Positions 1 through 48,506 of a stretch of DNA of 48,506 nt are shown here, piece after piece. Origin of the DNA: Candidatus Nomurabacteria bacterium (GTDB taxonomy: Bacteria; Patescibacteriota; Minisyncoccia; Phycocordibacterales; UBA9973). Every line of letters starts with the position of its first letter. Within the stretch, counting starts at the first letter, position 1. The DNA lies in assembly GCA_943348755.1 (NCBI GenBank), contig CALQYS010000006.1, positions 1-48,506 on the forward strand, in the 5' to 3' direction. The notes beneath the pieces were generated by a model. That model was given only the letters and a program-made list of their open reading frames with translations. It did no database searches and was not told the origin of the DNA. The position numbers and the translations under genes are program-made.

Positions 1-1470
1 AAGAATAAGAGCGGCTGAAGAACTATTGGGGATGGTCAACGTTCCAGTAGTTGAAGTCACCGTCAATCCGTTGATGGAAGTAGCAGTGGCAGCCCCAATG
101 TTGGGGGTCGTTAAAGTCGGAGTATCTTGCATTACGAAAGTAGTTCCACTTCCTGTTTGCGCAACTGAAGTTACGTTACCGACAGAAGTAACTGGTCCGG
201 TTAAATTTGCGTTAGTAGTAACATTTCCAGCAGTTAACCCAGCAGCTGTACCGGTAATATATGTACCAATAAGTAAAGAAGGAGTGCCAAGATTAGGATT
301 GATTAATGTTGGAGAAGTCGCAAGTGCTAAAACGGTTCCACTTCCGGTAGTGGTCATTTCTCCAATTGTCCCGACGTTATCGTATAACACACGTCCAGAT
401 GTCCCACCTGTTACTGTGGTACTTCCTAATGTAATGTCACTTGGTGTCGTAATTCCCCAAGATGTTCCATTAAATATGTTTAGGAGATTGCTGGTAGTGT
501 TATAAATTATAAGACCAGTTGCGGGTGATGTTATGGCATCCCTCTGTGCCGTGGTCATGCGTGGTCCCAAAAAACCTTTAGAAGTAGAAGTAAGATCTAA
601 AATGGATGACGCAGCTGGAGTTGCCGTGCCGAGCCCGAGAATATGGTTAGTGGCATCATAAAAGAAATTCGAATTATCTTGTGTGATACCGCTGGCACCC
701 TGAAAATAAACTGAACCGAGAGTCAGAGCTGGATTAAAAGCTCCTGTAGAACTAATACTCGTCCCCCCCACCGTCAGTCCTCCACTGATCGTCGTGGCAC
801 CTGCTACATTCAAGGTAGTAACATTGGTGGTAGTAGCGTTAATAATATTGGAGTTTAGACTTGCAATGTTGGCATAAGCACCACCCGGGAAATTATTAGC
901 TGAAGAGTCTGGGTTAGCTAGACGAACTGGTAGATAAGCTACAGAGTTAGGAGTGGAAGGTTGACTTAAACCTTGAGGTCCCGCTGGACCTTGGGGTCCA
1001 GTGGGACCGCGTAGTTGATCAGCGATTTCTTTTTTGGAAAGTAGATTTTTTAAAGCAGGAATAAGGACGCTATCACTGACATTGGCTGTAGGTGAAGAAT
1101 TATTTGGCTGAGTAGTAATTTTTGAAAAAGTTTTAACTACACCCAATTGACTGGTATTAGATTCTGCAGAACTTGGATTAATACTTGGTTGAGGTTCAGG
1201 TAAGATATAAGCCTTGAAAGTTTTTAATAAGGAACTACTACCTATAACGTTAGCTGAAAATGGATTTGACGGAGGAAGAAAAGAAAATATGTAATCTTTA
1301 AAAGATTTAGTTAAAGAAGCGCTTGTAACAGATCCATTAGAAGATACCGGATTTATTGAATCAGCTGCAAAAACATCTTTTGATGTAGATAGAAAAACAA
1401 AAAAAGCAAAGACAAAAAGTCCAAGAGAGAATCTTTTTACAAAAATTCTAAAAGTTCTATTTTTTGACAT
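1..1470 (-). CDS. Large repetitive surface/adhesin-like protein, N-terminal part (runs off the left edge)
   Basis: Hand translation of the minus strand from ATG at 1470 gives an open frame to position 1: hydrophobic N-terminus (MSKNRTFRIFVKRFSLGLFVFAFFVFL), collagen-like GPTGPQGPAGPQG, then Ser/Thr/Gly-rich repeats. Not in the ORF track because no stop falls inside the window. Confidence 0.85.
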   Translation of the reverse strand, partial: MSKNRTFRIFVKRFSLGLFVFAFFVFLSTSKDVFAADSINPVSSNGSVTSASLTKSFKDYIFSFLPPSNPFSANVIGSSSLLKTFKAYILPEPQPSINPSSAESNTSQLGVVKTFSKITTQPNNSSPTANVSDSVLIPALKNLLSKKEIADQLRGPTGPQGPAGPQGLSQPSTPNSVAYLPVRLANPDSSANNFPGGAYANIASLNSNIINATTTNVTTLNVAGATTISGGLTVGGTSISSTGAFNPALTLGSVYFQGASGITQDNSNFFYDATNHILGLGTATPAASSILDLTSTSKGFLGPRMTTAQRDAITSPATGLIIYNTTSNLLNIFNGTSWGITTPSDITLGSTTVTGGTSGRVLYDNVGTIGEMTTTGSGTVLALATSPTLINPNLGTPSLLIGTYITGTAAGLTAGNVTTNANLTGPVTSVGNVTSVAQTGSGTTFVMQDTPTLTTPNIGAATATSINGLTVTSTTGTLTIPNSSSAALIL

Positions 1471-13389: not shown

Positions 13390-13516
13390 ATTTTGTACTG
13401 GATGAACCGGTGATTTCAACTTCACCCCGCCTGAGCTGGGCGGGGCAGGCTCACCCATGCCTCCATTTTTTCAATTTAACATTTTTTGCGATTTTATCAA
13501 AAATAAAACAAGAACA

Positions 13517-13543
13517 TAAAAAGCCCCTTTTGGGAGCTTTTTA
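13517..13543. terminator. Intrinsic terminator-like hairpin
   Basis: AAAAAGCCCCTTTTGGGAGCTTTTT, stem with U-tract. Confidence 0.6.
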
Positions 13544-13550
13544 CTACGCG

Positions 13551-13837
13551 TGAACTAATTATACACTTTGCACGAACTTTTTTCGAGGGGAAATCCTAGC
13601 GTGCCTCGCGCCCGCCAAAGGCGGGCAGGCGTTCTACGCCCTTTTTCCAAAGGAGAAAAGCGAGGCACGCAATACCAATACAAAATGGACTCGGTTTTGC
13701 GAAACTATTTTGCGGGAGGGAGGGTTCGCAAAACCGAGACTAAGTTTTTTGAAATTCGGCGGGATTCGGGTTTCCGCCCCGCAGGAGGGTGCGGGAGGAA
13801 TGCGGGGCGGGGGTTTTGGAATTTTGGCGGGGGGCTA
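13551..13837 (+). repeat. Left copy of 287-bp perfect inverted repeat (IR1-L)
   Basis: Reverse complement of 15554-15840 by direct comparison, equal length; the encoded pseudo-ORFs are identical. Confidence 0.95.
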
Positions 13838-13855
13838 GAAAATTCTTAAAATTGA

Positions 13856-14998
13856 TTAGAGGCTTAATATGCCAGAAAGCTCAAAGGCAGATTTTAATCT
13901 TGCTTGTTTGATTTTGCTTTCTAGTGAATCATCAAAATCTATCCATCTAATACCATATACATTTATGGTTTGTCTTTTGGTGGGTTGGATACCATTTCTT
14001 TTTTCATTTTCATAATACTCATATTTTTTGACTGATTCAGTGGGAAGACCAAGAAGAATGCCAACAGCCAAATGATTACCTACTGCTGATTTATTTTCGC
14101 CAATAGAACCCATAATTGTATCTGGATCATCAGAACCGAAAATCTCAAATATCTCTTTATGTTTTTTTATAACATCTCCAACTTGTTCTTTGTCATATAC
14201 ATACTTACCTTTCACTTCTATACCAAAAGATTTTAATAAATTAATTATTTCTAAATTATCAGGGTCCAGAGGTGTTTCAAGTAAAACAACAGGTTTTTCT
14301 CCCAAAAATAGTGCCTTGAGTGCGTTCAGATCGATTGGGTTAAAAATGGTTTCAAATTTTTCTCGTACTGATTGTTCTTGTATGATTTTAATAAATTGCT
14401 TAAATTTTTCTGCTCCTTTATTCCATTTTAAGGTATCTAATTCGTTAAAAATTTCTACTGGAGATTCAAATATTACTGGAGCTGGTGGAGTATTAGCACT
14501 TGTTCGTAAAGCATTGTTATATAATGTGTGAAATTCTGAATTTAATATTGTATATTCTTGCTCATCACCACTGGAAAGAGAACCTAAAAGTTTCCTCAAC
14601 CTACTAAGGATTTGTAGTCGCTCAAACTTTTCGTCATCCATTTCAAATACAATAGGATGCTCCATAGAATCTTGACTCCGTGTTTTGGTAATATGTTCTT
14701 CCGGTTTTTCAGTATTTGCAACTCTTACACGGCTTGAAGTTTCAACAGCATTAATAAATTTTTTATTCAAATCGGAATACTCTTCTCTGTCTGCTTCACT
14801 TAAGTTTTCACCCATAGCGAGAATTGCACCAAGTTCTTGAAGTCGGTTAAAATTTTCTTCTCCCATTATTTCTACACTATTATATCCATTAGGAACCACA
14901 GGAGAAGCTTCAGCAGTTGTTGATATGTTTTCTATCTTTTTTTGTGTTTTTACACCATTTAACGATGGATTAAGCGGTGTGGGTGAAAATCCTTCCAT
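13856..14998 (-). CDS. Hypothetical protein (cargo of the IR1 element)
   Basis: 380-aa ORF with ordinary amino-acid composition; family not recognised. Confidence 0.75.
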   Translation of the reverse strand: MEGFSPTPLNPSLNGVKTQKKIENISTTAEASPVVPNGYNSVEIMGEENFNRLQELGAILAMGENLSEADREEYSDLNKKFINAVETSSRVRVANTEKPEEHITKTRSQDSMEHPIVFEMDDEKFERLQILSRLRKLLGSLSSGDEQEYTILNSEFHTLYNNALRTSANTPPAPVIFESPVEIFNELDTLKWNKGAEKFKQFIKIIQEQSVREKFETIFNPIDLNALKALFLGEKPVVLLETPLDPDNLEIINLLKSFGIEVKGKYVYDKEQVGDVIKKHKEIFEIFGSDDPDTIMGSIGENKSAVGNHLAVGILLGLPTESVKKYEYYENEKRNGIQPTKRQTINVYGIRWIDFDDSLESKIKQARLKSAFELSGILSL

Positions 14999-15039
14999 GC
15001 TTACATTCTATCACAAAAATACTATACACATAATTTTGC

Positions 15040-15122
15040 TTGACTTCCTTCGCTCGTTTGCTATACTTAATACACAAAGTGCCGAAAGGCTCCGAGAAAC
15101 CCCGCCAAAAGCGGGGTTTCGA
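15040..15122 (+). ncRNA. Candidate promoter plus short structured RNA in the IR1 cargo
   Basis: TTGACT-16 nt-TATACT (15040-15067), then GCC-GAAA-GGC tetraloop hairpin (15081-15090) and 10-bp stem GAAACCCCGC-CAAAA-GCGGGGTTTC (15096-15120). Confidence 0.35.
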
Positions 15123-15126
15123 GTTT

Positions 15127-15516
15127 CTAGAGGAAAGATTTTAATTTTTGCCTAATTTCATCAAAAAGTTCGTTTGAAACCTCATAGAGCTTTCTTTTTA
15201 ATCTTTTCACACTAACTAATTTCATTTGTGCCAAAATCGCAGAAACTTTTTGATTATTTGGATCGGTGTAATTGAAATAAAAATCAAAATCTTTCTGCTT
15301 GGTGGAAAGTGATATAGACCAAAACATATGATTATTAAATTTCTTAATTATTAAAATCGGACGAGAAAAATTATCTCCGCTTCCATTTTGTTCAAATCCG
15401 ATATTTCTGCCAAGACTACACATCCAAACTTCTCCCTCTTTGGGAAATTTATCAGGATCATTTTTCTCGGCTTCAATTTTCTTTTTTAACTCATTCCAAG
15501 AGTCAAAATCTTTCAT
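15127..15516 (-). CDS. PemK/MazF-like type II toxin family protein
   Basis: GEVWMCSLGRNIGFEQNG...FSRPILIIKKFN...AILAQMKLVSVKRLKRK matches the PemK/MazF pattern. Confidence 0.75.
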   Translation of the reverse strand: MKDFDSWNELKKKIEAEKNDPDKFPKEGEVWMCSLGRNIGFEQNGSGDNFSRPILIIKKFNNHMFWSISLSTKQKDFDFYFNYTDPNNQKVSAILAQMKLVSVKRLKRKLYEVSNELFDEIRQKLKSFL

Positions 15517-15553
15517 AGAAAGATTTTATCATATTTTGTATTTAATTTCTGGA

Positions 15554-15840
15554 TAGCCCCCCGCCAAAATTCCAAAACCCCCGCCCCGCATTCCTCCCGC
15601 ACCCTCCTGCGGGGCGGAAACCCGAATCCCGCCGAATTTCAAAAAACTTAGTCTCGGTTTTGCGAACCCTCCCTCCCGCAAAATAGTTTCGCAAAACCGA
15701 GTCCATTTTGTATTGGTATTGCGTGCCTCGCTTTTCTCCTTTGGAAAAAGGGCGTAGAACGCCTGCCCGCCTTTGGCGGGCGCGAGGCACGCTAGGATTT
15801 CCCCTCGAAAAAAGTTCGTGCAAAGTGTATAATTAGTTCA
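15554..15840 (-). repeat. Right copy of 287-bp perfect inverted repeat (IR1-R)
   Basis: Reverse complement of 13551-13837. Confidence 0.95.
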
Positions 15841-15967
15841 CCCAAAGAAACGTTTGCGAAATTAGAAATAAGGTGCGAGTTTTCAGAATGAAAACTCGCG
15901 CTAGGTAGCCCGCTTCCGCCCTTTGCGGAAGCGACAAAATCCCAAAGTTCCCCCCAGTGTATGGAAA
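15838..15967 (+). repeat. Left copy of 130-bp perfect inverted repeat (IR2-L)
   Basis: TCACCCAAAGAAACG...CAGTGTATGGAAA is the exact reverse complement of 17375-17504; includes the recombinase start codon. Confidence 0.95.
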
Positions 15968-17562
15968 CAATTCAAATCAAAACAAAATGTGTTCTCTACG
16001 CCAGAAAATCTACTGAAGATGACGACAAACAAGTCATGAGTATTGAAGCTCAACTTTTTGAACTGCGTGAATATGCGCGTAGAGAATGCATTGAAATTCT
16101 AAAAGAATTTACGGAAGCGAAAAGCGCAAAGAAACCCGGGCGAGAAGAATTTGCCAAAATGTTGGCGTTCGTGGAAACTTCAAAAGAACCAATCGGCATA
16201 CTCGCTTGGCATCCAGACCGTCTCGCCCGAAATTCTGTTGATGGTGGAAAAATAATATACTTAGTGGACATCAACAGAATTGCTTCTTTACGCTTTCCTC
16301 AGTTTTGGTTTGAATCAACTCCGCAAGGCAAATTTATGTTGCAAGTGGCTTTCGGACAATCAAAATATTTTTCTGATAATCTTGTTGAAAATGTGAAGCG
16401 CGGAGTCCGCCAAAAACTTCGCCGTGGGGAATGGCTTACAAAAGCTCCGTATGGTTATGTAAATAATTTGAAAACGAGAAATATTGAACCTCATCCCGTG
16501 TATTCAAAAATCGTGGTGAGAGCTTTTGAAGAATATGTGAAAAATATTTACACCATTGAAGGATTAAGCAAATTTTTGGCGGACTTAGGACTTGTCACAA
16601 AAATAGGAAAGCCACTTGCCAAAGCTTGCATTGTGCGATTACTTACCAATCGTGCATATTTAGGATTTATCAAACACCACGATGAATGGCACAATGGAAG
16701 CTTTGCGCCAATTATTTCTCCGACCCTGTTTGAAGCAGTGCAGAAAATCTATAAAACGAGACAGAGACCGAGAAAATCTAAAATTGCTCATCCATTTCAT
16801 TTTCTCGGTTTTGCTCGTTGTGGCGAGTGTGGAGGTATGTTTACCGCTCAATATTCTACCAACCGTTTTGGCACAAAATATTCATATTATCGTTGCACAA
16901 AAAAGTTTGGGAAGTGCGGTCAACTATACCTCCAAGAAAACGCACTCGCCACACAACTGCAAACACTGCTTCAATCAGTGTCGCTTCCCCGTGAAGAAAT
17001 ATTAAAAATGGAAAAGAAAATTGATGAATGGGAAAATGAAAATATTTGCGCGCGGGGAAGTGTTGTCCAAAATCTCAAAGAAAAGATTCGAGAAAATCAA
17101 GAGAAGCTGGACAAACTTGTTTCCATTTACCTAGACGGGGACATTGAACGAGAAATATATTTAGAACGAAAAGATTTACTCATGCGAGAAAAAGCTTCTT
17201 TTCTCGAATCCGAAAGAGATTTTGGACAACAGAGAAAAAATTGGATCGAACCCTTGCGGAGTTTCGTTTTGTCCTTGAAAGAATGTGCCGATTTGGAAAA
17301 AACCGAAAATTATTTGGAATGGAAGCGGTTTTTCAAAAAAATCGGCTCTAACCCTGAAATCAAGGACAAAACGATTTCCATACACTGGGGGGAACTTTGG
17401 GATTTTGTCGCTTCCGCAAAGGGCGGAAGCGGGCTACCTAGCGCGAGTTTTCATTCTGAAAACTCGCACCTTATTTCTAATTTCGCAAACGTTTCTTTGG
17501 GTGACCCTACAGGGAATCGAACCCTGATTATCGGATTGAAAACCCGGTGTCCTAACCGTTAG
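15961..17562 (+). CDS. Large serine recombinase (resolvase domain + recombinase domain + zinc ribbon)
   Basis: CVLYARKSTEDDDKQVMSIEAQL catalytic N-terminus, WHPDRLARNSVDGG, recombinase domain, FLGFARCGECGGMFTAQYS...YYRCTKKFGKCGQ zinc ribbon. The C-terminus reads through IR2-R and antisense to tRNA-Glu. Confidence 0.9.
   Translation: METIQIKTKCVLYARKSTEDDDKQVMSIEAQLFELREYARRECIEILKEFTEAKSAKKPGREEFAKMLAFVETSKEPIGILAWHPDRLARNSVDGGKIIYLVDINRIASLRFPQFWFESTPQGKFMLQVAFGQSKYFSDNLVENVKRGVRQKLRRGEWLTKAPYGYVNNLKTRNIEPHPVYSKIVVRAFEEYVKNIYTIEGLSKFLADLGLVTKIGKPLAKACIVRLLTNRAYLGFIKHHDEWHNGSFAPIISPTLFEAVQKIYKTRQRPRKSKIAHPFHFLGFARCGECGGMFTAQYSTNRFGTKYSYYRCTKKFGKCGQLYLQENALATQLQTLLQSVSLPREEILKMEKKIDEWENENICARGSVVQNLKEKIRENQEKLDKLVSIYLDGDIEREIYLERKDLLMREKASFLESERDFGQQRKNWIEPLRSFVLSLKECADLEKTENYLEWKRFFKKIGSNPEIKDKTISIHWGELWDFVASAKGGSGLPSASFHSENSHLISNFANVSLGDPTGNRTLIIGLKTRCPNR
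17375..17504 (-). repeat. Right copy of 130-bp perfect inverted repeat (IR2-R)
   Basis: Exact reverse complement of 15838-15967; overlaps the last 3 nt of tRNA-Glu. Confidence 0.95.
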
Positions 17563-17573
17563 ACGATAGGGCC
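17502..17573 (-). tRNA. tRNA-Glu(TTC)
   Basis: Minus strand GGCCCTA...CCGGGTTTTCAATCCGA...CAGGGTTCGATTCCCTG-TAGGGTC-A; anticodon TTC; followed by CCC rather than CCA. Confidence 0.88.
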
Positions 17574-17653
17574 ATGTAGAAAAATATAGCATTTTTGTAC
17601 TTAATTGCAAAACAAAAGAATAAATTAAATATAAAAAAATATTTTGAAAAAGT

Positions 17654-39100: not shown

Positions 39101-42100
39101 TTTGGGTCGTAGAAAGAGCTTCTCGCCCAATAGCAGTATTTTGTATAGCTGTTGTGTTTGCAGTTAATGCACTTAAGCCAACTGCTACATTGTCTGTACC
39201 CGTTGTATTCGCAAATAAAGCACTATTACCGAATGCAGAGTTAGATGAACCTGTGGTATTTGTATACATCGAAGAAACACCAATAGCGGTATTTGAACCA
39301 CCAGAAGTAGTATTGGTCATTGCGTTATAGCCCATTGCTGTATTAGAAGCTGCAGTGTTGTTATATAGAGTTGCATAACCAACAGCCGTATTTCCATTTC
39401 CCGTAACTACACTAGCTAGCGAACTATCTCCTATAGCGACATTCCCCGCACCTGTAGTATTCAATAAAAGCGCATCCCCACCAATAGCCACGTTTGAGTT
39501 ACCTGTAGTGTTCGCATTCAATGCACGATATCCCAGAGCCACATCATATGTAGCAGTAGTTAAAGCTGCTGCTGCTGCTGAACCCACCGCCACATTTTTG
39601 TTGCCTGTAGTAGACGCTGCCAAAGCACTCGAACCTACAGCAGTGTTGTCCGATGCGGTGGTCATGGCCACCAATGCAGAATAACCCACAGCTGTGTTAC
39701 GAGCTCCTGTGGTCGCCGTGTATCCGGCTTGGGAACCAACGAAAGTATTAAACGTTCCGCTGGTATCTGATGTGCCCGCAAAGAAACCAACAAATGTATT
39801 TTCTGCCCCAGTTAGAGCCCCTGCTCCAGCTCCTGCGCCGACAATGGTCGCTCGAGTGGCGGTGGTATTACCTCCCGCACCCTGTGAACCGACTACTACA
39901 GTATCAGCATTGCTTCCTGAACCTAAACCTATTCTAAGAGTATTGATGAAAGAATCTTTTGCAATACCCACACCTCCAGAAACTACCAAGGCTCCTGTTG
40001 TTGTAGAAGTGGAAGCGGTAGTATTTGTTAAAGTTGCAACACCAGATGCTCCAAGAGTTGTTACCCCACTAAGTGGACCACTTAAAGCTAGAGATGTCCC
40101 AGACGCTGCACCAATATTTGGCGTCGTAAAGCTTGGACTCTCCAAAAAGGCAAATGTTTTTCGGGCAGCTCCGGTTGTAATCGTTCCATAAAATGCATCA
40201 GTTAGAAATTCCACTGCTCCAGCTTCGGGTGTGGTATTTAGAGAGCCTGAAGTAAATTTTAATGGTGCGGTGCTTGCTGTAGCTGTGCCAGCTCCTAAGT
40301 GAAGATAAGCAGTGGGTGCGGTAGTTCTTATGCCAAGAAGTCCACCAGTAGCATTGATAACAATATTTGCAGAATTACTATTACCATTTGTACCACCTTC
40401 GATCTTATAATAAGTATTACCAGAGACAGCAGATGGGTATATTCTGAATCCTGACCCAGTTGAACCACTCACCCAATCACTATTCGTGAGACCTAAAGAA
40501 CCTCCTAAAGTAGACGAGCCTCTGAACCCAGCCGATACGGTAGCACTGAATAAGTCACTGCCATTAAATGAAGCAGTACCATCTTGAGTAAATGTAAGAG
40601 CGTTTATTGAAGCACCACCTCCGCCAGCCATAAAGAAATTAAGTTTGTCTGTAGCTGGATTTCCATTAAAACTACTTTGAATTTCATTGTAGTAAACGGT
40701 TGGCTGTGCACTGTATGAAAGTCTTATGTTCGCTGAATTAGTAAAAGAACCAGCAACATTACGGCTGACTTCCAATGCTTGGGCTGGTGATGTGATCCCG
40801 ATCCCAACATTACCTGCGGAATCAATTCTCATCCTCTCAGAATTATTTGTTGCAAATGTATAAGGTTGAGCAGCAGAAGTACCTGTGATAAGTGCGGAGT
40901 TTACGTAGATTGCACTTGCACCAGCTTTAGTAACACCAAACAAAGTACCTGAAATTGAGTTTCCATAAGTTTCCATCGAAAGGGCATTACCATTGTTGGT
41001 ATTTTGAGCATAAAGAGAAGCAGTAGCATTGGCAGCTGTGGCATTAGCAGTAAAATATGTATTTTGAGAAGTTTGAGCAATAATATTTCCTGCTACTTGT
41101 AGTTTTTCACTTGGACTTGTGGTGCCGATGCCGACATTACCACTGCTATCAATCGTCATCCGTTCTGTACTGTTTGTCGCCAAACTAACACGGTTGGCTG
41201 CTGGTAAGTAGAGACCATTGGTTGGTACAGTACTTCCGGTCGGAATAAATGAAGCAGCAGAGGCAGAGGAAGAAATAGCTGTCATACCCGTCACTGCTAA
41301 TGCATTGCTTCCGAGAGTTGCACCATTGACAGCAAGTGAAGTTGCGGTTGCGACACCCAAGATTGGTGTAGTCAAAGTCTTGTTTGAAAGCGTCTCTATC
41401 CCAGCTAAAGTGGCCAGAGTGCCGGTCGTCGGCAGGGTAACACTGGTTGCTGCAGTAGTCAAAAGCGAGAGAGCATTTGTGGGCGAGAAGGTAACTACTT
41501 CACCACCACCTAGTGTAATGGCGTTGGTGGCAAGAGTCGTACTGTCTGAGACGGTAAGAGTTTTACTTGCGCCGAGAGTAAGAGTACCTGTGCCAGTGGT
41601 AATGGTGTTACCATTAATGCTAAGAGCAGTAAGCGCACCCGAGAGAGCAAGAGTGGTTCCAGTCAATGCCCCACTGCTAGCAATGCTTGTGCCACCGACA
41701 GTGAGAGCGCCAGTGAGTGTCGTCGCTCCCGCTACATTCAAGGTAGTAACGTTGGTGGTGGTAGCATTAATAATATTGGAGTTTAGACTTGCAATGTTCG
41801 CATAAGCACCACCAGGGAAATTATTAGCTGAAGAGTCTGGATTAGCTAGACGAACTGGTAGATAAGCTACAGAGTTAGGAGTGGAAGGTTGACTTAAACC
41901 TTGAGGTCCCGCTGGACCTTGGGGTCCAGTGGGACCACGTAGTTGGTCAGCGATTTCTTTTTTAGAAAGTATCTTTCGTAAAGCGGAGAGGACGCTAGAT
42001 TCACTGACGGATGATGGTGGGGTGGATACGTAGACTACAGGGGGGTTAGTGACAATAGATGATACAGAATTATCACCTTTTTCAGCACCTTGATTGGGTA

Positions 42101-42308
42101 AGAGTGCCGAAGGCGGGATAGTGTTATTTTGAGTAACTGGCGTGATTACAGAAGAAGAAGCAACATAGCTTCTAAAAGCATGGACAAGAGAGTTGGTATT
42201 TACTGCAGCCGATGCATCAGGGGTATATAGAAAAAGAAAAAAAGCAAAGACAAAAAGTCCAAGTGGAAATCTTTTTACGAGTGCCCTAAAATTATTTTTA
42301 TTTTTCAT
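36126..42308 (-). CDS. Giant (2060 aa) surface adhesin/tail-fibre-like protein: signal peptide, collagen-like GXX, YadA-head-like repeats, S74 intramolecular chaperone, Ig-like C-terminal domain
   Basis: GPTGPQGPAGPQG; NTAVGYSAL/NVAIGGDAL series; TTSDQRLKNLVNENTASS S74 motif; DTTPPVITLNGDSTMNLNVGETYSEQGATATDDVD DUF5011/HYR-like. Confidence 0.92.
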   Translation of the reverse strand: MKNKNNFRALVKRFPLGLFVFAFFLFLYTPDASAAVNTNSLVHAFRSYVASSSVITPVTQNNTIPPSALLPNQGAEKGDNSVSSIVTNPPVVYVSTPPSSVSESSVLSALRKILSKKEIADQLRGPTGPQGPAGPQGLSQPSTPNSVAYLPVRLANPDSSANNFPGGAYANIASLNSNIINATTTNVTTLNVAGATTLTGALTVGGTSIASSGALTGTTLALSGALTALSINGNTITTGTGTLTLGASKTLTVSDSTTLATNAITLGGGEVVTFSPTNALSLLTTAATSVTLPTTGTLATLAGIETLSNKTLTTPILGVATATSLAVNGATLGSNALAVTGMTAISSSASAASFIPTGSTVPTNGLYLPAANRVSLATNSTERMTIDSSGNVGIGTTSPSEKLQVAGNIIAQTSQNTYFTANATAANATASLYAQNTNNGNALSMETYGNSISGTLFGVTKAGASAIYVNSALITGTSAAQPYTFATNNSERMRIDSAGNVGIGITSPAQALEVSRNVAGSFTNSANIRLSYSAQPTVYYNEIQSSFNGNPATDKLNFFMAGGGGASINALTFTQDGTASFNGSDLFSATVSAGFRGSSTLGGSLGLTNSDWVSGSTGSGFRIYPSAVSGNTYYKIEGGTNGNSNSANIVINATGGLLGIRTTAPTAYLHLGAGTATASTAPLKFTSGSLNTTPEAGAVEFLTDAFYGTITTGAARKTFAFLESPSFTTPNIGAASGTSLALSGPLSGVTTLGASGVATLTNTTASTSTTTGALVVSGGVGIAKDSFINTLRIGLGSGSNADTVVVGSQGAGGNTTATRATIVGAGAGAGALTGAENTFVGFFAGTSDTSGTFNTFVGSQAGYTATTGARNTAVGYSALVAMTTASDNTAVGSSALAASTTGNKNVAVGSAAAAALTTATYDVALGYRALNANTTGNSNVAIGGDALLLNTTGAGNVAIGDSSLASVVTGNGNTAVGYATLYNNTAASNTAMGYNAMTNTTSGGSNTAIGVSSMYTNTTGSSNSAFGNSALFANTTGTDNVAVGLSALTANTTAIQNTAIGREALSTTQTGNRNTAVGYRSLSSSNGAAENTGVGWQAGYAVSSGNYNTYLGSQAGISATTGSNNVSIGYSAGAYSTTQSNELFIDNQSRTNRAGDIAGALLYGTFNSTVASQTLAINAATTVSSTTASTSSTTGALKVSGGLGVAGAINTGSSITVPAASGYLFVGGGSLKTDGSSIMTLSAPYQGFAFYSPQTGTNVLSTDNVTIYANLLLQTAAGGINFGAGTGANIRNTSNVLIFNAYDSYQFTTTGGTSTTVASINNAGMGTFTNLTNSGLTATRVTFAGTGGLLSDDADLTFATDTLSATKLLSSTSVSTPSLISTGAITMTPAAGSNLNVALSTTGDFAVNTNQLYVDTSAAAVGIGITTPVAPLHVVGASSQGIRISGAANARLTLVASNDSTNMWNFDNSAGTLRFFRENYSASGSGAGGSVKMSITDSGRVGIGTTATNILDIDDGGDETLVGIGGAGTSARLRIGWDRSGPDSGILSAQIAVDDSGNLVLGTRSNNTSGLMFYTYTGSAYGERGRFASGGNFGIGSTSPTAHLMIDGNISASSWTTDGIAFDSNAATYTDTSTAAAGTVAIRTANSFGAPTFASTNAITVTDAFTLYVPKPIAGTNTTITRANSAYFEGAVGIGTTTPGYKFDVKNDVASYVANFFNDGNNANRSGVLIQAGLDDDTAAGPSTLIAFKDGDGGDIGSITFGSSATAYNTTSDQRLKNLVNENTASSLNVLNQIKIHDFTWKNDANHNLYTGVFAQELYNVYPHAVTKPINDADKWMVDYSKLTPVMIASIQELDLNLNAIAGTITPLAGSTNESFVNAFFKNVYEKVDTWMADKANNIGDFFANKVHTKQICVAKSDGTEFCADGDKLEAMAAGSSSSVANNTGGSSSGSGGSSAGGTPPADPGTGGGATPGADTTPPVITLNGDSTMNLNVGETYSEQGATATDDVDTSVAVIISGTVDTNTAGTYTIHYNATDTAGNHAIEVTRTVNVNAPAPTAGP

Positions 42309-42311
42309 TAG

Positions 42312-45989: not shown

Positions 45990-48506
45990 TTAGGGTGCGG
46001 GTGTTGAATCTGGGGCTGGGGTTGGATCTGGAGTTGGAGATGGTGTAGGTGTCGTTTCTGGTGCTGGAGTTGGATCAGTTATTGGTGTGGGGTCAGGAGA
46101 AGGAGTTGGTGCTGAACTTTCACCTCCAGTCTGTCCTAATGAACCCGGAGTATTATTTACAACACTGCTACTAGCAGACCCCGTTAAAAGAGCGTCAAGT
46201 TTTTCACGTGTAATGCAGGTTTCGCCGGAGTCGTTACTTACACAAAGTTCCTTAGTTCTTACTCGATTTGCAATAAAATCTCCTATCCCATTTCCGACAT
46301 CCCCCATCCAAGTCCCAACCTTAGCAAAAACATTTTTGAAGAAAGCTGTGACAAAAGATTCATCTACCGAACCAGCGAGCGGAGTGATGGTGCCAGCTAT
46401 TGCACCTAATTTTAATTCTGGCATTTGATAATTTAGATTCATAAATGTGAGAACCTTCGTCTTGCCAGCAGAACTCTCTAAAGCAATACCCACGCCCTGT
46501 CCCGACTCTGTCATCTTCATAGCATAACCCGGTAAGGTTTTTGATGGAGCCAGCCTATCGCCCGGAATGATAGCTCCATTCTCTTCTGAAATTTTAACTG
46601 GGATTCTTCCCGCAAGAGCTACTTTCCTCCATTCTCCTCTAGTTTGATTACCTAAAGTTAGACCAGGATTTGTGGAAATTATACCGATAACATTATTTAT
46701 CCCTAGTGCATTTCTAATAAGTTTTCCATCTGCACCAACACTAACCACGTCACCCGGTACCAGTGTTGGATCAAGTGTTTGGTATTGTTCTGACACGTCG
46801 AAACCTCCCGCCAAAGTAGAAGTTAAGCCCTTAAAATTAACAGCATAGACATTATTAAAGAAACCGGAAGTATTTGTGCCTATGTCTCCTGATGGATTAT
46901 AAATTGTAAAAGCGTCTGTGGCCGCGTTTGTGACAGTGCTATTAGTTAGAGTTACAACTTGATAAGTAGTAGCTCCATCGACACATTGCGCAACAGAGGC
47001 AATTATATCATGTAGAGCTGCTGTGGAATTATAAAAGATGTGTCCTACGGTGGGAGCGGTTGTTCCAACAAAAACTGCAATGTTAACAGTGTTAACAGTG
47101 GCAACACAAGTACCAGTGCCATCAGTTAGAGTCGAAGTACCCATACTAACTGTACTATTGGCCGTGTCACTTATGGTACCAGCTACAGATAACGATGTAG
47201 CTGAAGCCACGCCAAGGGTTGGAGTCACCAACGTTGGGCTCGTAGAAAACACAAGATTAGTTGAAGTTGTTCCAGTTGCTCCACTAGCAGTGTAGCCTGT
47301 GATGTTGTTGAAGGCGGTGATACCAGCAGAAGTAGCATTAGTTCCACCTTGAGCCACAGTTACTACTGCATTACTGGTTAAAATAGTTGCAGAAGCATTC
47401 GGTAAAGTAAAGGTTTTTTCTGAAGTAGTAGGTCCTGTAAACTTAGTAAATCCATTTCCAGTTCCACCATAAGTTGAAGCAATAACTTGAGTAAGTGCCG
47501 CAGTGCCATCAAAGTTGTTACCATAAATAGCACGTGTAGTAGCAAGAGCCGTCGCAGTACTTGCTGTTCCAGTTAAAGCACCCACGAAAGTTGTCGCATT
47601 GACGGTGTTTGCAAAAGTTGCACTTTGGTCAGCGTTTAAGGTAAGTGCGGTAGTTGCCGTACCACCACTTGTCGTGGTTTGTAAAGCTAGGGTTCGGCTG
47701 TTGCCGGTACCAGCGGTGATGGTCATGTTACCTGCTCCACCTGTTAAAGTCCACGATCCTGTTCCGCTGATATTTCCACCAAATGTAGAAGATTGATCTG
47801 CGTTTCCTGTCAAGAAAGCAGTGGCCGTACCACCACTTGTAGTACTTTTCAACGTAAGAGTTCTACTATTTCCGGTACCAGCGGTGATAACCATATTACT
47901 TGCTCCACCTGTTATATCTCCAACTGATGTAAGTGAACCTGTGATGTTCGCTGTACCATCAAAGCTTTGACCCCATAAAGTTCTTGCAGTGGCTAGAGCA
48001 GTGGCAGCACCAGCCGTTAAGCTTGCAGCAGTACCTGTTAGATTAGTGGCAACACCAGAAGCAGGAGTACCTAGGGCTGGAGCTACAAATGTTTTATTCG
48101 TTAAAGTCTGGGTTCCTCCCACTGTCACTACACTTGCAGTATTTGTTCCTGCAGTAGTGATACGAAGATCCCCAGTACCTTCAGTTAAAATTCCAGTAGT
48201 GTGAGTAAATACCACATCACCGTTTGCATAATTGATAACTGCACCTGAAGCAAGGAAAAGGTCAGAGAAATTGTGTGTGGCATTTCCGAGTGCTGCACCA
48301 TCGTCAGTGCCAGGTAGAAGAGAGGTATTGATCGCGACAGAAGCCAGGTTATCTAAAGCGGTTGTAGCTCCTGAGGATCCACTTCCACAATCAGAACCTG
48401 TTCCAGAGACTACTCCACTAGTATTTACATGTAAACATTGAGTAGAGCCAGTAATGGAACTTAGGGTTAATCCAGAGGCTGTAGCGGCACCAATATTCGG
48501 AGTGAC
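45990..48506 (-). CDS. Large repetitive surface protein, C-terminal part (runs off the right edge)
   Basis: The 45990..48215 ORF begins at an internal GTG; the frame stays open to 48506 (VTPNIGAATASGLTLSS...). Ser/Thr/Gly repeats, VALAGRIPVKISEENGAIIPGDRL segment, P/T/D-rich tail. Confidence 0.85.
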   Translation of the reverse strand, partial: VTPNIGAATASGLTLSSITGSTQCLHVNTSGVVSGTGSDCGSGSSGATTALDNLASVAINTSLLPGTDDGAALGNATHNFSDLFLASGAVINYANGDVVFTHTTGILTEGTGDLRITTAGTNTASVVTVGGTQTLTNKTFVAPALGTPASGVATNLTGTAASLTAGAATALATARTLWGQSFDGTANITGSLTSVGDITGGASNMVITAGTGNSRTLTLKSTTSGGTATAFLTGNADQSSTFGGNISGTGSWTLTGGAGNMTITAGTGNSRTLALQTTTSGGTATTALTLNADQSATFANTVNATTFVGALTGTASTATALATTRAIYGNNFDGTAALTQVIASTYGGTGNGFTKFTGPTTSEKTFTLPNASATILTSNAVVTVAQGGTNATSAGITAFNNITGYTASGATGTTSTNLVFSTSPTLVTPTLGVASATSLSVAGTISDTANSTVSMGTSTLTDGTGTCVATVNTVNIAVFVGTTAPTVGHIFYNSTAALHDIIASVAQCVDGATTYQVVTLTNSTVTNAATDAFTIYNPSGDIGTNTSGFFNNVYAVNFKGLTSTLAGGFDVSEQYQTLDPTLVPGDVVSVGADGKLIRNALGINNVIGIISTNPGLTLGNQTRGEWRKVALAGRIPVKISEENGAIIPGDRLAPSKTLPGYAMKMTESGQGVGIALESSAGKTKVLTFMNLNYQMPELKLGAIAGTITPLAGSVDESFVTAFFKNVFAKVGTWMGDVGNGIGDFIANRVRTKELCVSNDSGETCITREKLDALLTGSASSSVVNNTPGSLGQTGGESSAPTPSPDPTPITDPTPAPETTPTPSPTPDPTPAPDSTPAP

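What the first reader, a model, noticed from the sequence alone, without database searches (positions are those of the whole stretch)
13551..15840. 287-bp perfect terminal inverted repeats flank a toxin-plus-unknown-gene cargo
Seen: 13551-13837 and 15554-15840 are perfect reverse complements, enclosing a PemK/MazF-like gene and a 380-aa unknown gene on the minus strand, with no transposase between. Perfect identity implies recent mobility, recent duplication or active gene conversion. It resembles a non-autonomous composite element mobilised in trans.
Basis: partly seen in the sequence, partly recalled or inferred. Interest (0 to 1): 0.72.

Follow-up and report, generated by a model that had tools for sequence, protein, structure and literature searches.

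The report
tRNA-inserted cassette with doubled inverted ends
The two perfect inverted repeats are half of a larger mobile element that inserts at the 3' end of tRNA genes using its own serine recombinase, and the same unusual double-inverted-repeat layout recurs with different cargo genes in dozens of bacteria, mostly ultra-small Patescibacteria.

Summary
The repeat is real: 288 bp, 100% identical, 13550-13837 / 15554-15841. It is not a free-standing transposase-less transposon. It abuts, sharing 4 bp (TCAC), a second perfect inverted repeat (130 bp, 15838-15967 / 17375-17504) around a large serine recombinase gene (15961-17562), whose outer end overlaps the 3' end of tRNA-Glu (17498-17574). 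The whole is one element, 13550-17504: tRNA.A-rec-A'.B'-cargo-B.chromosome. By geometry attL = T.A, attR = B.D, and the middle junction is an intact attP in inverted orientation.

The layout recurs: 91 of about 120 related recombinase loci carry the A repeat, 73 of these beside a tRNA 3' end (32 isoacceptors); 34 also have the cargo repeat. The recombinase reads toward the tRNA (two exceptions); cargo reads away from it in 33 of 34. Arms are about 98% identical within elements and about 65% between them, so they evolve in concert. Cargo is swapped freely (restriction-modification, Shedu, GmrSD, OLD, a reverse transcriptase, metabolic genes). A GTTCG motif lies about 5 bp further out in attP than in the tRNA, as for serine integrases. 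I found no description of this architecture in the open papers searched. Why the attP is doubled remains open.

The parts
17498..17574 (-). tRNA-Glu (UUC) gene; its 3' end is the insertion site (T half of attB)
   Evidence: ARAGORN and Rfam tRNA; overlaps the A arm by 7 nt
17501..17504 (.). attL core (GTGA; TCAC on the tRNA strand) joining tRNA and A arm
17375..17504 (-). A arm, tRNA-side copy (130 bp, 100% identical to the other A arm); also encodes the recombinase C-terminal tail
15961..17562 (+). large serine recombinase (Resolvase, Recombinase and Zn-ribbon domains), reading toward the tRNA; the ORF runs into the tRNA gene
   Evidence: Pfam PF00239, PF07508, PF13408; best NCBIfam resemblance CcrB, far below its cut-off
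15838..15967 (+). A arm, middle copy (130 bp); holds the recombinase leader and start codon
15838..15841 (.). core TCAC shared by both repeat pairs: centre of an intact attP (B.core.A) in inverted orientation relative to the end sites
15554..15841 (-). B arm, middle copy (288 bp); carries the GTTCG motif that mimics the tRNA T-arm
15127..15516 (-). cargo gene: PemK/MazF-like toxin-family protein, 129 aa
   Evidence: Pfam PemK_toxin E 1.5e-8
13856..14998 (-). cargo gene: 380-aa protein of unknown family; one distant relative (29% over its C-terminal part) in 100 related genomes
13550..13837 (+). B arm, chromosome-side copy (288 bp, 100%); outer end is attR
13550..13553 (.). attR core (GTGA) joining B arm and chromosomal flank D
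13507..13549 (-). D flank: terminator-like hairpin and T-run that would directly follow tRNA-Glu in the empty site

Best explanation
Window 13550-17504 is one site-specifically integrated cassette element. Shown by sequence: order tRNA.core.A - recombinase - A'.core'.B' - cargo - B.core.D; the core is the last bases of the tRNA acceptor end; end cores are in direct orientation and the middle one is inverted; each arm pair is near-identical within an element. Inferred: a large serine recombinase that reads the conserved T-arm and 3' end of many tRNAs integrates a circular form by attP x attB. The end junctions are then attL (T.A) and attR (B.D), so circularising the element rebuilds attP = B.core.A. 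The middle junction is a second, intact attP in inverted orientation. The circle would therefore carry two inverted copies of a B+A repeat (about 414 bp here), one between the 5' ends and one between the 3' ends of recombinase and cargo; integration uses the copy between the 3' ends, and the other stays whole in the middle as the divergent start region for recombinase and cargo. Arms are kept identical by repeated gene conversion. Cargo is exchangeable accessory, often defence, genes.
For: Two abutting perfect inverted repeats sharing the core. Same layout in independent assemblies: A repeat in 91 loci, tRNA at its outer end in 73 (32 isoacceptors; overlap mostly 4 or 6 nt), cargo repeat B in 34, sharing 3-6 bp with A in most. 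All IR-bearing recombinases fall in one part of the tree; none of the 13 more distant relatives sampled passed the same screen. GTTCG motif sits 23-24 nt before the core in attP and 18 nt in the tRNA, a shift of 4-6 bp in 46 of 54 sites, matching the 5-bp displacement of the zinc-ribbon motif between attP and attB in serine integrases (PMC3783163). Concerted evolution: within-element arm identity median 98%, between-element 65%; 10,344 of 11,465 left-arm differences mirrored in the right arm (pairs not independent). Uninterrupted sites: tRNA-Ser(CGA) and tRNA-Glu(UUC) 28 bp apart in L151; same gene order without the element in L144. Middle site appears active: in L160 an A-rec-A unit without B lies between two different tRNA-Leu genes, as expected if the middle attP recombined with a second tRNA.
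Against: No excised circle, read data or biochemistry was seen. Two equal attP copies should give both orientations of the recombinase relative to the tRNA; almost all read toward it (exceptions L107, L200), so selection or an extra mechanism must be added. Identities of A and B arms in one element are uncorrelated (Spearman 0.20, p 0.31, n 27), so arms are not simply renewed together at each jump. The attB side D has no recognisable half-site, unusual for this enzyme class. No same-species genome with the exact empty site was available.
Confidence: 0.74

Rival explanations
1. Two separate terminal-inverted-repeat transposons, a recombinase unit and a passenger unit, inserted one after the other beside the tRNA.
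For: Each unit is bounded by its own long perfect inverted repeats.
Against: Shared cores are inverted at the two ends of each unit, not directly duplicated; the layout recurs with fixed order and polarity (33 of 34 cargo units read away from the recombinase), and the B units followed up lie next to an A arm, the contig end, or a degraded element. Independent insertions would give random orientation and isolated units.
Confidence: 0.07
2. Single-stranded integration: the two inverted attP copies pair within one strand of a single-stranded circle to form a double-stranded attP with the recombinase and cargo as loops, as in CTX phage; strand choice fixes the orientation and mismatch repair of the stem keeps arms identical.
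For: CTX phage uses two inverted attP sites folded from its single-stranded genome (PMC4246890). Explains the near-fixed polarity and the concerted arms.
Against: CTX and integron systems use tyrosine recombinases; a serine recombinase cuts both strands and would leave two hairpin-capped chromosome ends, needing an unproven resolution step. No single-strand transfer genes were recognised in the cargo examined. Two oppositely oriented cases exist.
Confidence: 0.1
3. Invertible switch: the recombinase flips recombinase and cargo segments between inverted sites to control expression (Hin or shufflon type).
For: Inverted sites flank each segment; attP-type site in the middle; two loci have the recombinase reversed.
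Against: Orientation is nearly invariant for both segments across divergent elements; arms are identical, so flipping would not change the adjacent sequence.
Confidence: 0.06
4. Assembly artefact or random inverted duplication.
For: Many contigs end inside the arms, as repeats break assemblies.
Against: Same architecture in dozens of genomes and assemblies, including elements internal to long contigs (L181, L212, L237).
Confidence: 0.01

Closest known systems
tRNA-integrated genomic islands and integrative elements with large serine recombinases
   Same: Insertion at a tRNA 3' end that leaves the tRNA complete, direct core repeats at the two ends, recombinase next to the tRNA, accessory cargo; attP/attB motif shift of about 5 bp as in PMC3783163.
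   Different: A second, intact, inverted attP between recombinase and cargo; arms of 75-370 bp kept near-identical far beyond a recognition site; one recombinase clade spread over 32 tRNA isoacceptors.
Staphylococcal cassette chromosome (Ccr serine recombinases)
   Same: Best NCBIfam resemblance is CcrB (78 bits; cut-off 900); inserts at the 3' end of a conserved gene with variable cargo (own knowledge).
   Different: Score far below the family cut-off; target is a tRNA, not rlmH; recombinase and cargo separated by inverted attP arms.
CTX phage (two inverted attP sites)
   Same: Two inverted attP copies in the free form (PMC4246890).
   Different: Serine, not Xer tyrosine, recombinase; attP copies here are near-identical and hundreds of bp long, and the middle junction looks like a complete attP.
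Yeast 2-micron plasmid
   Same: Predicted circle with two inverted repeats, each holding a recombination site, recombinase in one unique region (own knowledge).
   Different: Integrates into chromosomes; different enzyme family; orientation not mixed; no replication genes recognised in the cargo examined.
Integron gene cassettes
   Same: Swappable accessory cargo beside a recombinase.
   Different: Serine recombinase, one cargo block with long near-identical arms rather than tandem attC cassettes.

Membership tests
tRNA-integrated element of a large serine recombinase | Recombinase with resolvase, recombinase and zinc-ribbon domains | tested here: met
   Pfam hits above cut-offs; catalytic-region residues invariant in 17 relatives
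tRNA-integrated element of a large serine recombinase | Core identical to the tRNA 3' end, repeated directly at both element ends | tested here: met
   (window, L010, L052, L058, L105, L112 and others); 4-bp core in the window
tRNA-integrated element of a large serine recombinase | Uninterrupted site in relatives | tested here: met
   tRNA-Ser and tRNA-Glu adjacent in L151, syntenic in L144; the D flank differs, so the exact empty site was not seen
tRNA-integrated element of a large serine recombinase | Excision and integration activity | not testable with these tools
   needs reads or an assay
Terminal-inverted-repeat (composite) transposon | Direct target-site duplication outside the inverted repeats | tested here: not met
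   flanks of the 288-bp pair differ; the shared bases are inverted core
Terminal-inverted-repeat (composite) transposon | Insertion at varied sites in either orientation | tested here: not met
   fixed position and polarity
Staphylococcal cassette chromosome | Recombinase in the CcrA/B/C families | tested here: not met
   78 bits against a cut-off of 900
Staphylococcal cassette chromosome | Insertion in rlmH | tested here: not met
   inserted at tRNA genes
CTX-type single-stranded integration | Two inverted attP sites able to pair | tested here: met
   geometry
CTX-type single-stranded integration | Single-stranded DNA is the substrate | not testable with these tools
   experiment needed
Site-specific inversion system | Both orientations occur | tested here: not met
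   cargo 33 of 34 one way; recombinase reversed only in L107 and L200

The most novel reading that the evidence does not exclude
A widespread class of integrative element whose free form carries two long, inverted, concerted attP repeats and uses only one of them for integration, through a strand-specific or fold-back (single-stranded or hairpin) substrate of a serine recombinase; such a substrate is not among the serine-integrase systems I know.
Probability: 0.12. Interest if true: 0.92.

Novelty: new variant of a known kind. Interest (0 to 1): 0.72.

Why it matters
If right, many ultra-small Patescibacteria acquire restriction-modification, anti-phage and metabolic genes through one compact, self-recombining cassette system that uses tRNA genes in general as landing sites; this genome of 0.69 Mb holds at least four or five. 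It gives a concrete account of gene gain in reduced genomes, offers a serine recombinase clade that tolerates many tRNA targets, and poses a testable puzzle: why keep a second, inverted, near-identical attP. It also explains inverted repeats that break many Patescibacteria assemblies beside tRNA genes.

Tried and rejected
Independent TIR transposons, invertible cassette, artefact (see rivals). Expected both recombinase orientations from a two-attP circle: not seen apart from L107 and L200. Expected A and B arm identities to correlate: not so. Promoter in the B half of attP: TATAAT-like sites mildly enriched (19 of 54 with at least 5 of 6 matches, shuffled mean 8.9, maximum 17), not conclusive. 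Rfam: only tRNAs in the window. Plasmid collection: no match to the recombinase. Viral contigs: 7 relatives, none passing the arm screen. Papers: ten searches gave no description of this architecture; most subscription journals and preprints are not covered. The only relative of the 380-aa protein outside this genome (L250) has no detectable inverted repeat around it.

Full report
OBSERVATION. The inverted repeat is exact and slightly longer than reported: 13550-13837 and 15554-15841, 288 bp, 100%. Between the arms lie two minus-strand ORFs, a PemK/MazF-family protein and a 380-aa protein without a Pfam or NCBIfam match.

SURROUNDINGS. The right arm does not end in neutral DNA. Its last four bases (TCAC, 15838-15841) are also the first four of a second perfect inverted repeat, 130 bp, 15838-15967 and 17375-17504. 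That pair encloses a large serine recombinase (Resolvase, Recombinase, Zn-ribbon) reading on the plus strand, and its outer end overlaps the 3' end of a minus-strand tRNA-Glu (17498-17574). I call the recombinase-side arms A and the cargo-side arms B. Read from the tRNA (T) the order is T.core.A - rec - A'.core'.B' - cargo - B.core.D, D being chromosomal flank.

GEOMETRY. The cores next to T and D are in direct orientation; the middle one is inverted. With attB = T.core.D and attP = B.core.A, integration gives attL = T.core.A and attR = B.core.D, exactly the two ends. The middle junction, A'.core'.B', is then an intact attP in inverted orientation. A circle released by attL x attR would carry two inverted copies of the repeat B+A (about 414 bp here), recombinase in one unique segment and cargo in the other. 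This circle is inferred; it was not observed.

RECURRENCE. Repeat relatives occur in 22 of 60 genomes, largely in inverted pairs. In this genome further copies of the layout or parts of it lie on contigs C3, C4, C9 and C11. Around recombinase relatives in related genomes and in named genomes, 91 of about 120 loci carry an A pair with 1.4-2.1 kb between arms (median length 124 bp; 48 at 99% identity or more), and in 73 a tRNA lies at its outer end, over 32 isoacceptors; where the arm was complete it overlaps the tRNA by mostly 4 or 6 nt. B pairs were found in 34, 27 of them abutting A closely. Many loci lacking A or B stop at a contig end. Most hosts are Patescibacteria, but Omnitrophota (L194), a Marinimicrobia MAG (L237) and a Bacteroidota genome, Chitinophagaceae PMP191F (L209, perfect 157-bp pair, tRNA-Ser), carry it too. 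In the tree all IR-bearing recombinases lie in one part; the 13 more distant relatives sampled, several of them beside tRNA genes, had no pair that passed the same screen, though L242 shows a weak one (59%).

POLARITY. The recombinase reads toward the tRNA in all 73 loci with a tRNA at the outer end; L107 and L200 are reversed. Cargo reads away from the recombinase in 33 of 34. So the middle site is the divergent start region and the outer ends are 3' ends. This argues against free inversion and against independent transposon insertions. Two equal attP copies on a double-stranded circle predict both orientations; either the reverse state is selected against (the recombinase would sit downstream of a tRNA promoter, next to an intact attP), or integration uses a strand-specific substrate. 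I cannot decide between these.

SITE LOGIC. The B half of attP has a GTTCG motif 23-24 nt before the core; the T-arm GTTC of the tRNA starts 18 nt before it; the shift is 4-6 bp in 46 of 54 sites. A 5-bp outward displacement of the zinc-ribbon motif in attP relative to attB is the published rule for serine integrases (PMC3783163). This suggests how one clade can use so many tRNAs: the T-arm is nearly universal. D shows no consensus.

CONCERTED ARMS. For element pairs with recombinases at least 62% identical, A arms differ between elements (median 65% identity) but agree within them (median 98%); about 90% of left-arm differences are mirrored in the right arm (pairs are not independent). A and B identities within an element are not correlated, so homogenisation looks piecemeal, as by gene conversion, rather than once per jump.

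EVIDENCE OF ACTIVITY. Relatives keep tRNA-Ser(CGA) and tRNA-Glu(UUC) 28 bp apart (L151) or the same gene order without the element (L144); L068 holds a degraded relative at a tRNA-Glu. In L160 an A-rec-A unit sits between two different tRNA-Leu genes, and L111 holds a recombinase between tRNA-Arg and tRNA-Tyr with two unlike A arms; both fit recombination of a middle attP with another tRNA or element. These are interpretations of static sequence.

CARGO. Sampled cargo includes Type I and Eco57I-like restriction-modification, EcoRI-type and D12 methylases, GmrSD, Shedu, OLD-like ATPase, Mrr, a reverse transcriptase, D-Ala-D-Ala ligase, an aromatic amino acid lyase and a carbohydrate kinase. No replication or transfer genes were recognised in the cargo examined, which was not exhaustive. 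A winged-helix protein with a low-complexity N-terminus recurs in five cassettes (L010, L011, L056, L057, L059), a candidate regulator or directionality factor. The window's PemK-family gene and 380-aa ORF are thus one cargo among many; whether they form a toxin-antitoxin pair is untested.

VERDICT. It works like a tRNA-targeting serine-recombinase island and meets those membership tests that could be run; it differs by the doubled, inverted, concerted attP arms, for which I found no description in the open literature searched.

Noticed in passing
window 754-1053 and 41682-41981; 1385-1471 and 42223-42309: Two 300-nt direct repeats at 90% identity, 41 kb apart, with a further 87-nt similar stretch (79%) downstream: a duplicated segment near both ends of the window.
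   Followed up: no
window 47612-47914: Two adjacent 135-nt repeats at 73% identity, spaced 168 nt.
   Followed up: no
window 17375-17562: The recombinase ORF has its C-terminal tail inside the A arm and runs on into the antisense of tRNA-Glu, so its last residues should differ between integrated and circular forms.
   Followed up: partly
L010 4827-5378, L011 4631-5218, L056 2762-3463, L057 573-1184, L059 9776-10078: A winged-helix protein with conserved C-terminus recurs in cassettes with unrelated cargo; candidate recombination directionality factor.
   Followed up: partly
L113 11490-17577: A cassette carries a reverse transcriptase next to large exported-looking proteins, suggestive of a diversity-generating retroelement as cargo.
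   Followed up: no
L160 9798-11622: An A-recombinase-A unit without cargo lies between two different tRNA-Leu genes.
   Followed up: partly
L111 1199-3207: Recombinase between tRNA-Arg and tRNA-Tyr with two unlike A arms, apparently a hybrid of two elements.
   Followed up: partly
L216 8000-8110: Flank outside the cargo repeat looks like another attP-type half-site, a possible tandem element.
   Followed up: no
A arms, about 40 nt from the core: GC-rich perfect hairpin (stem 8 bp or more in 35 of 77 arms; mean longest stem in shuffled arms 4.5), function unknown.
   Followed up: partly
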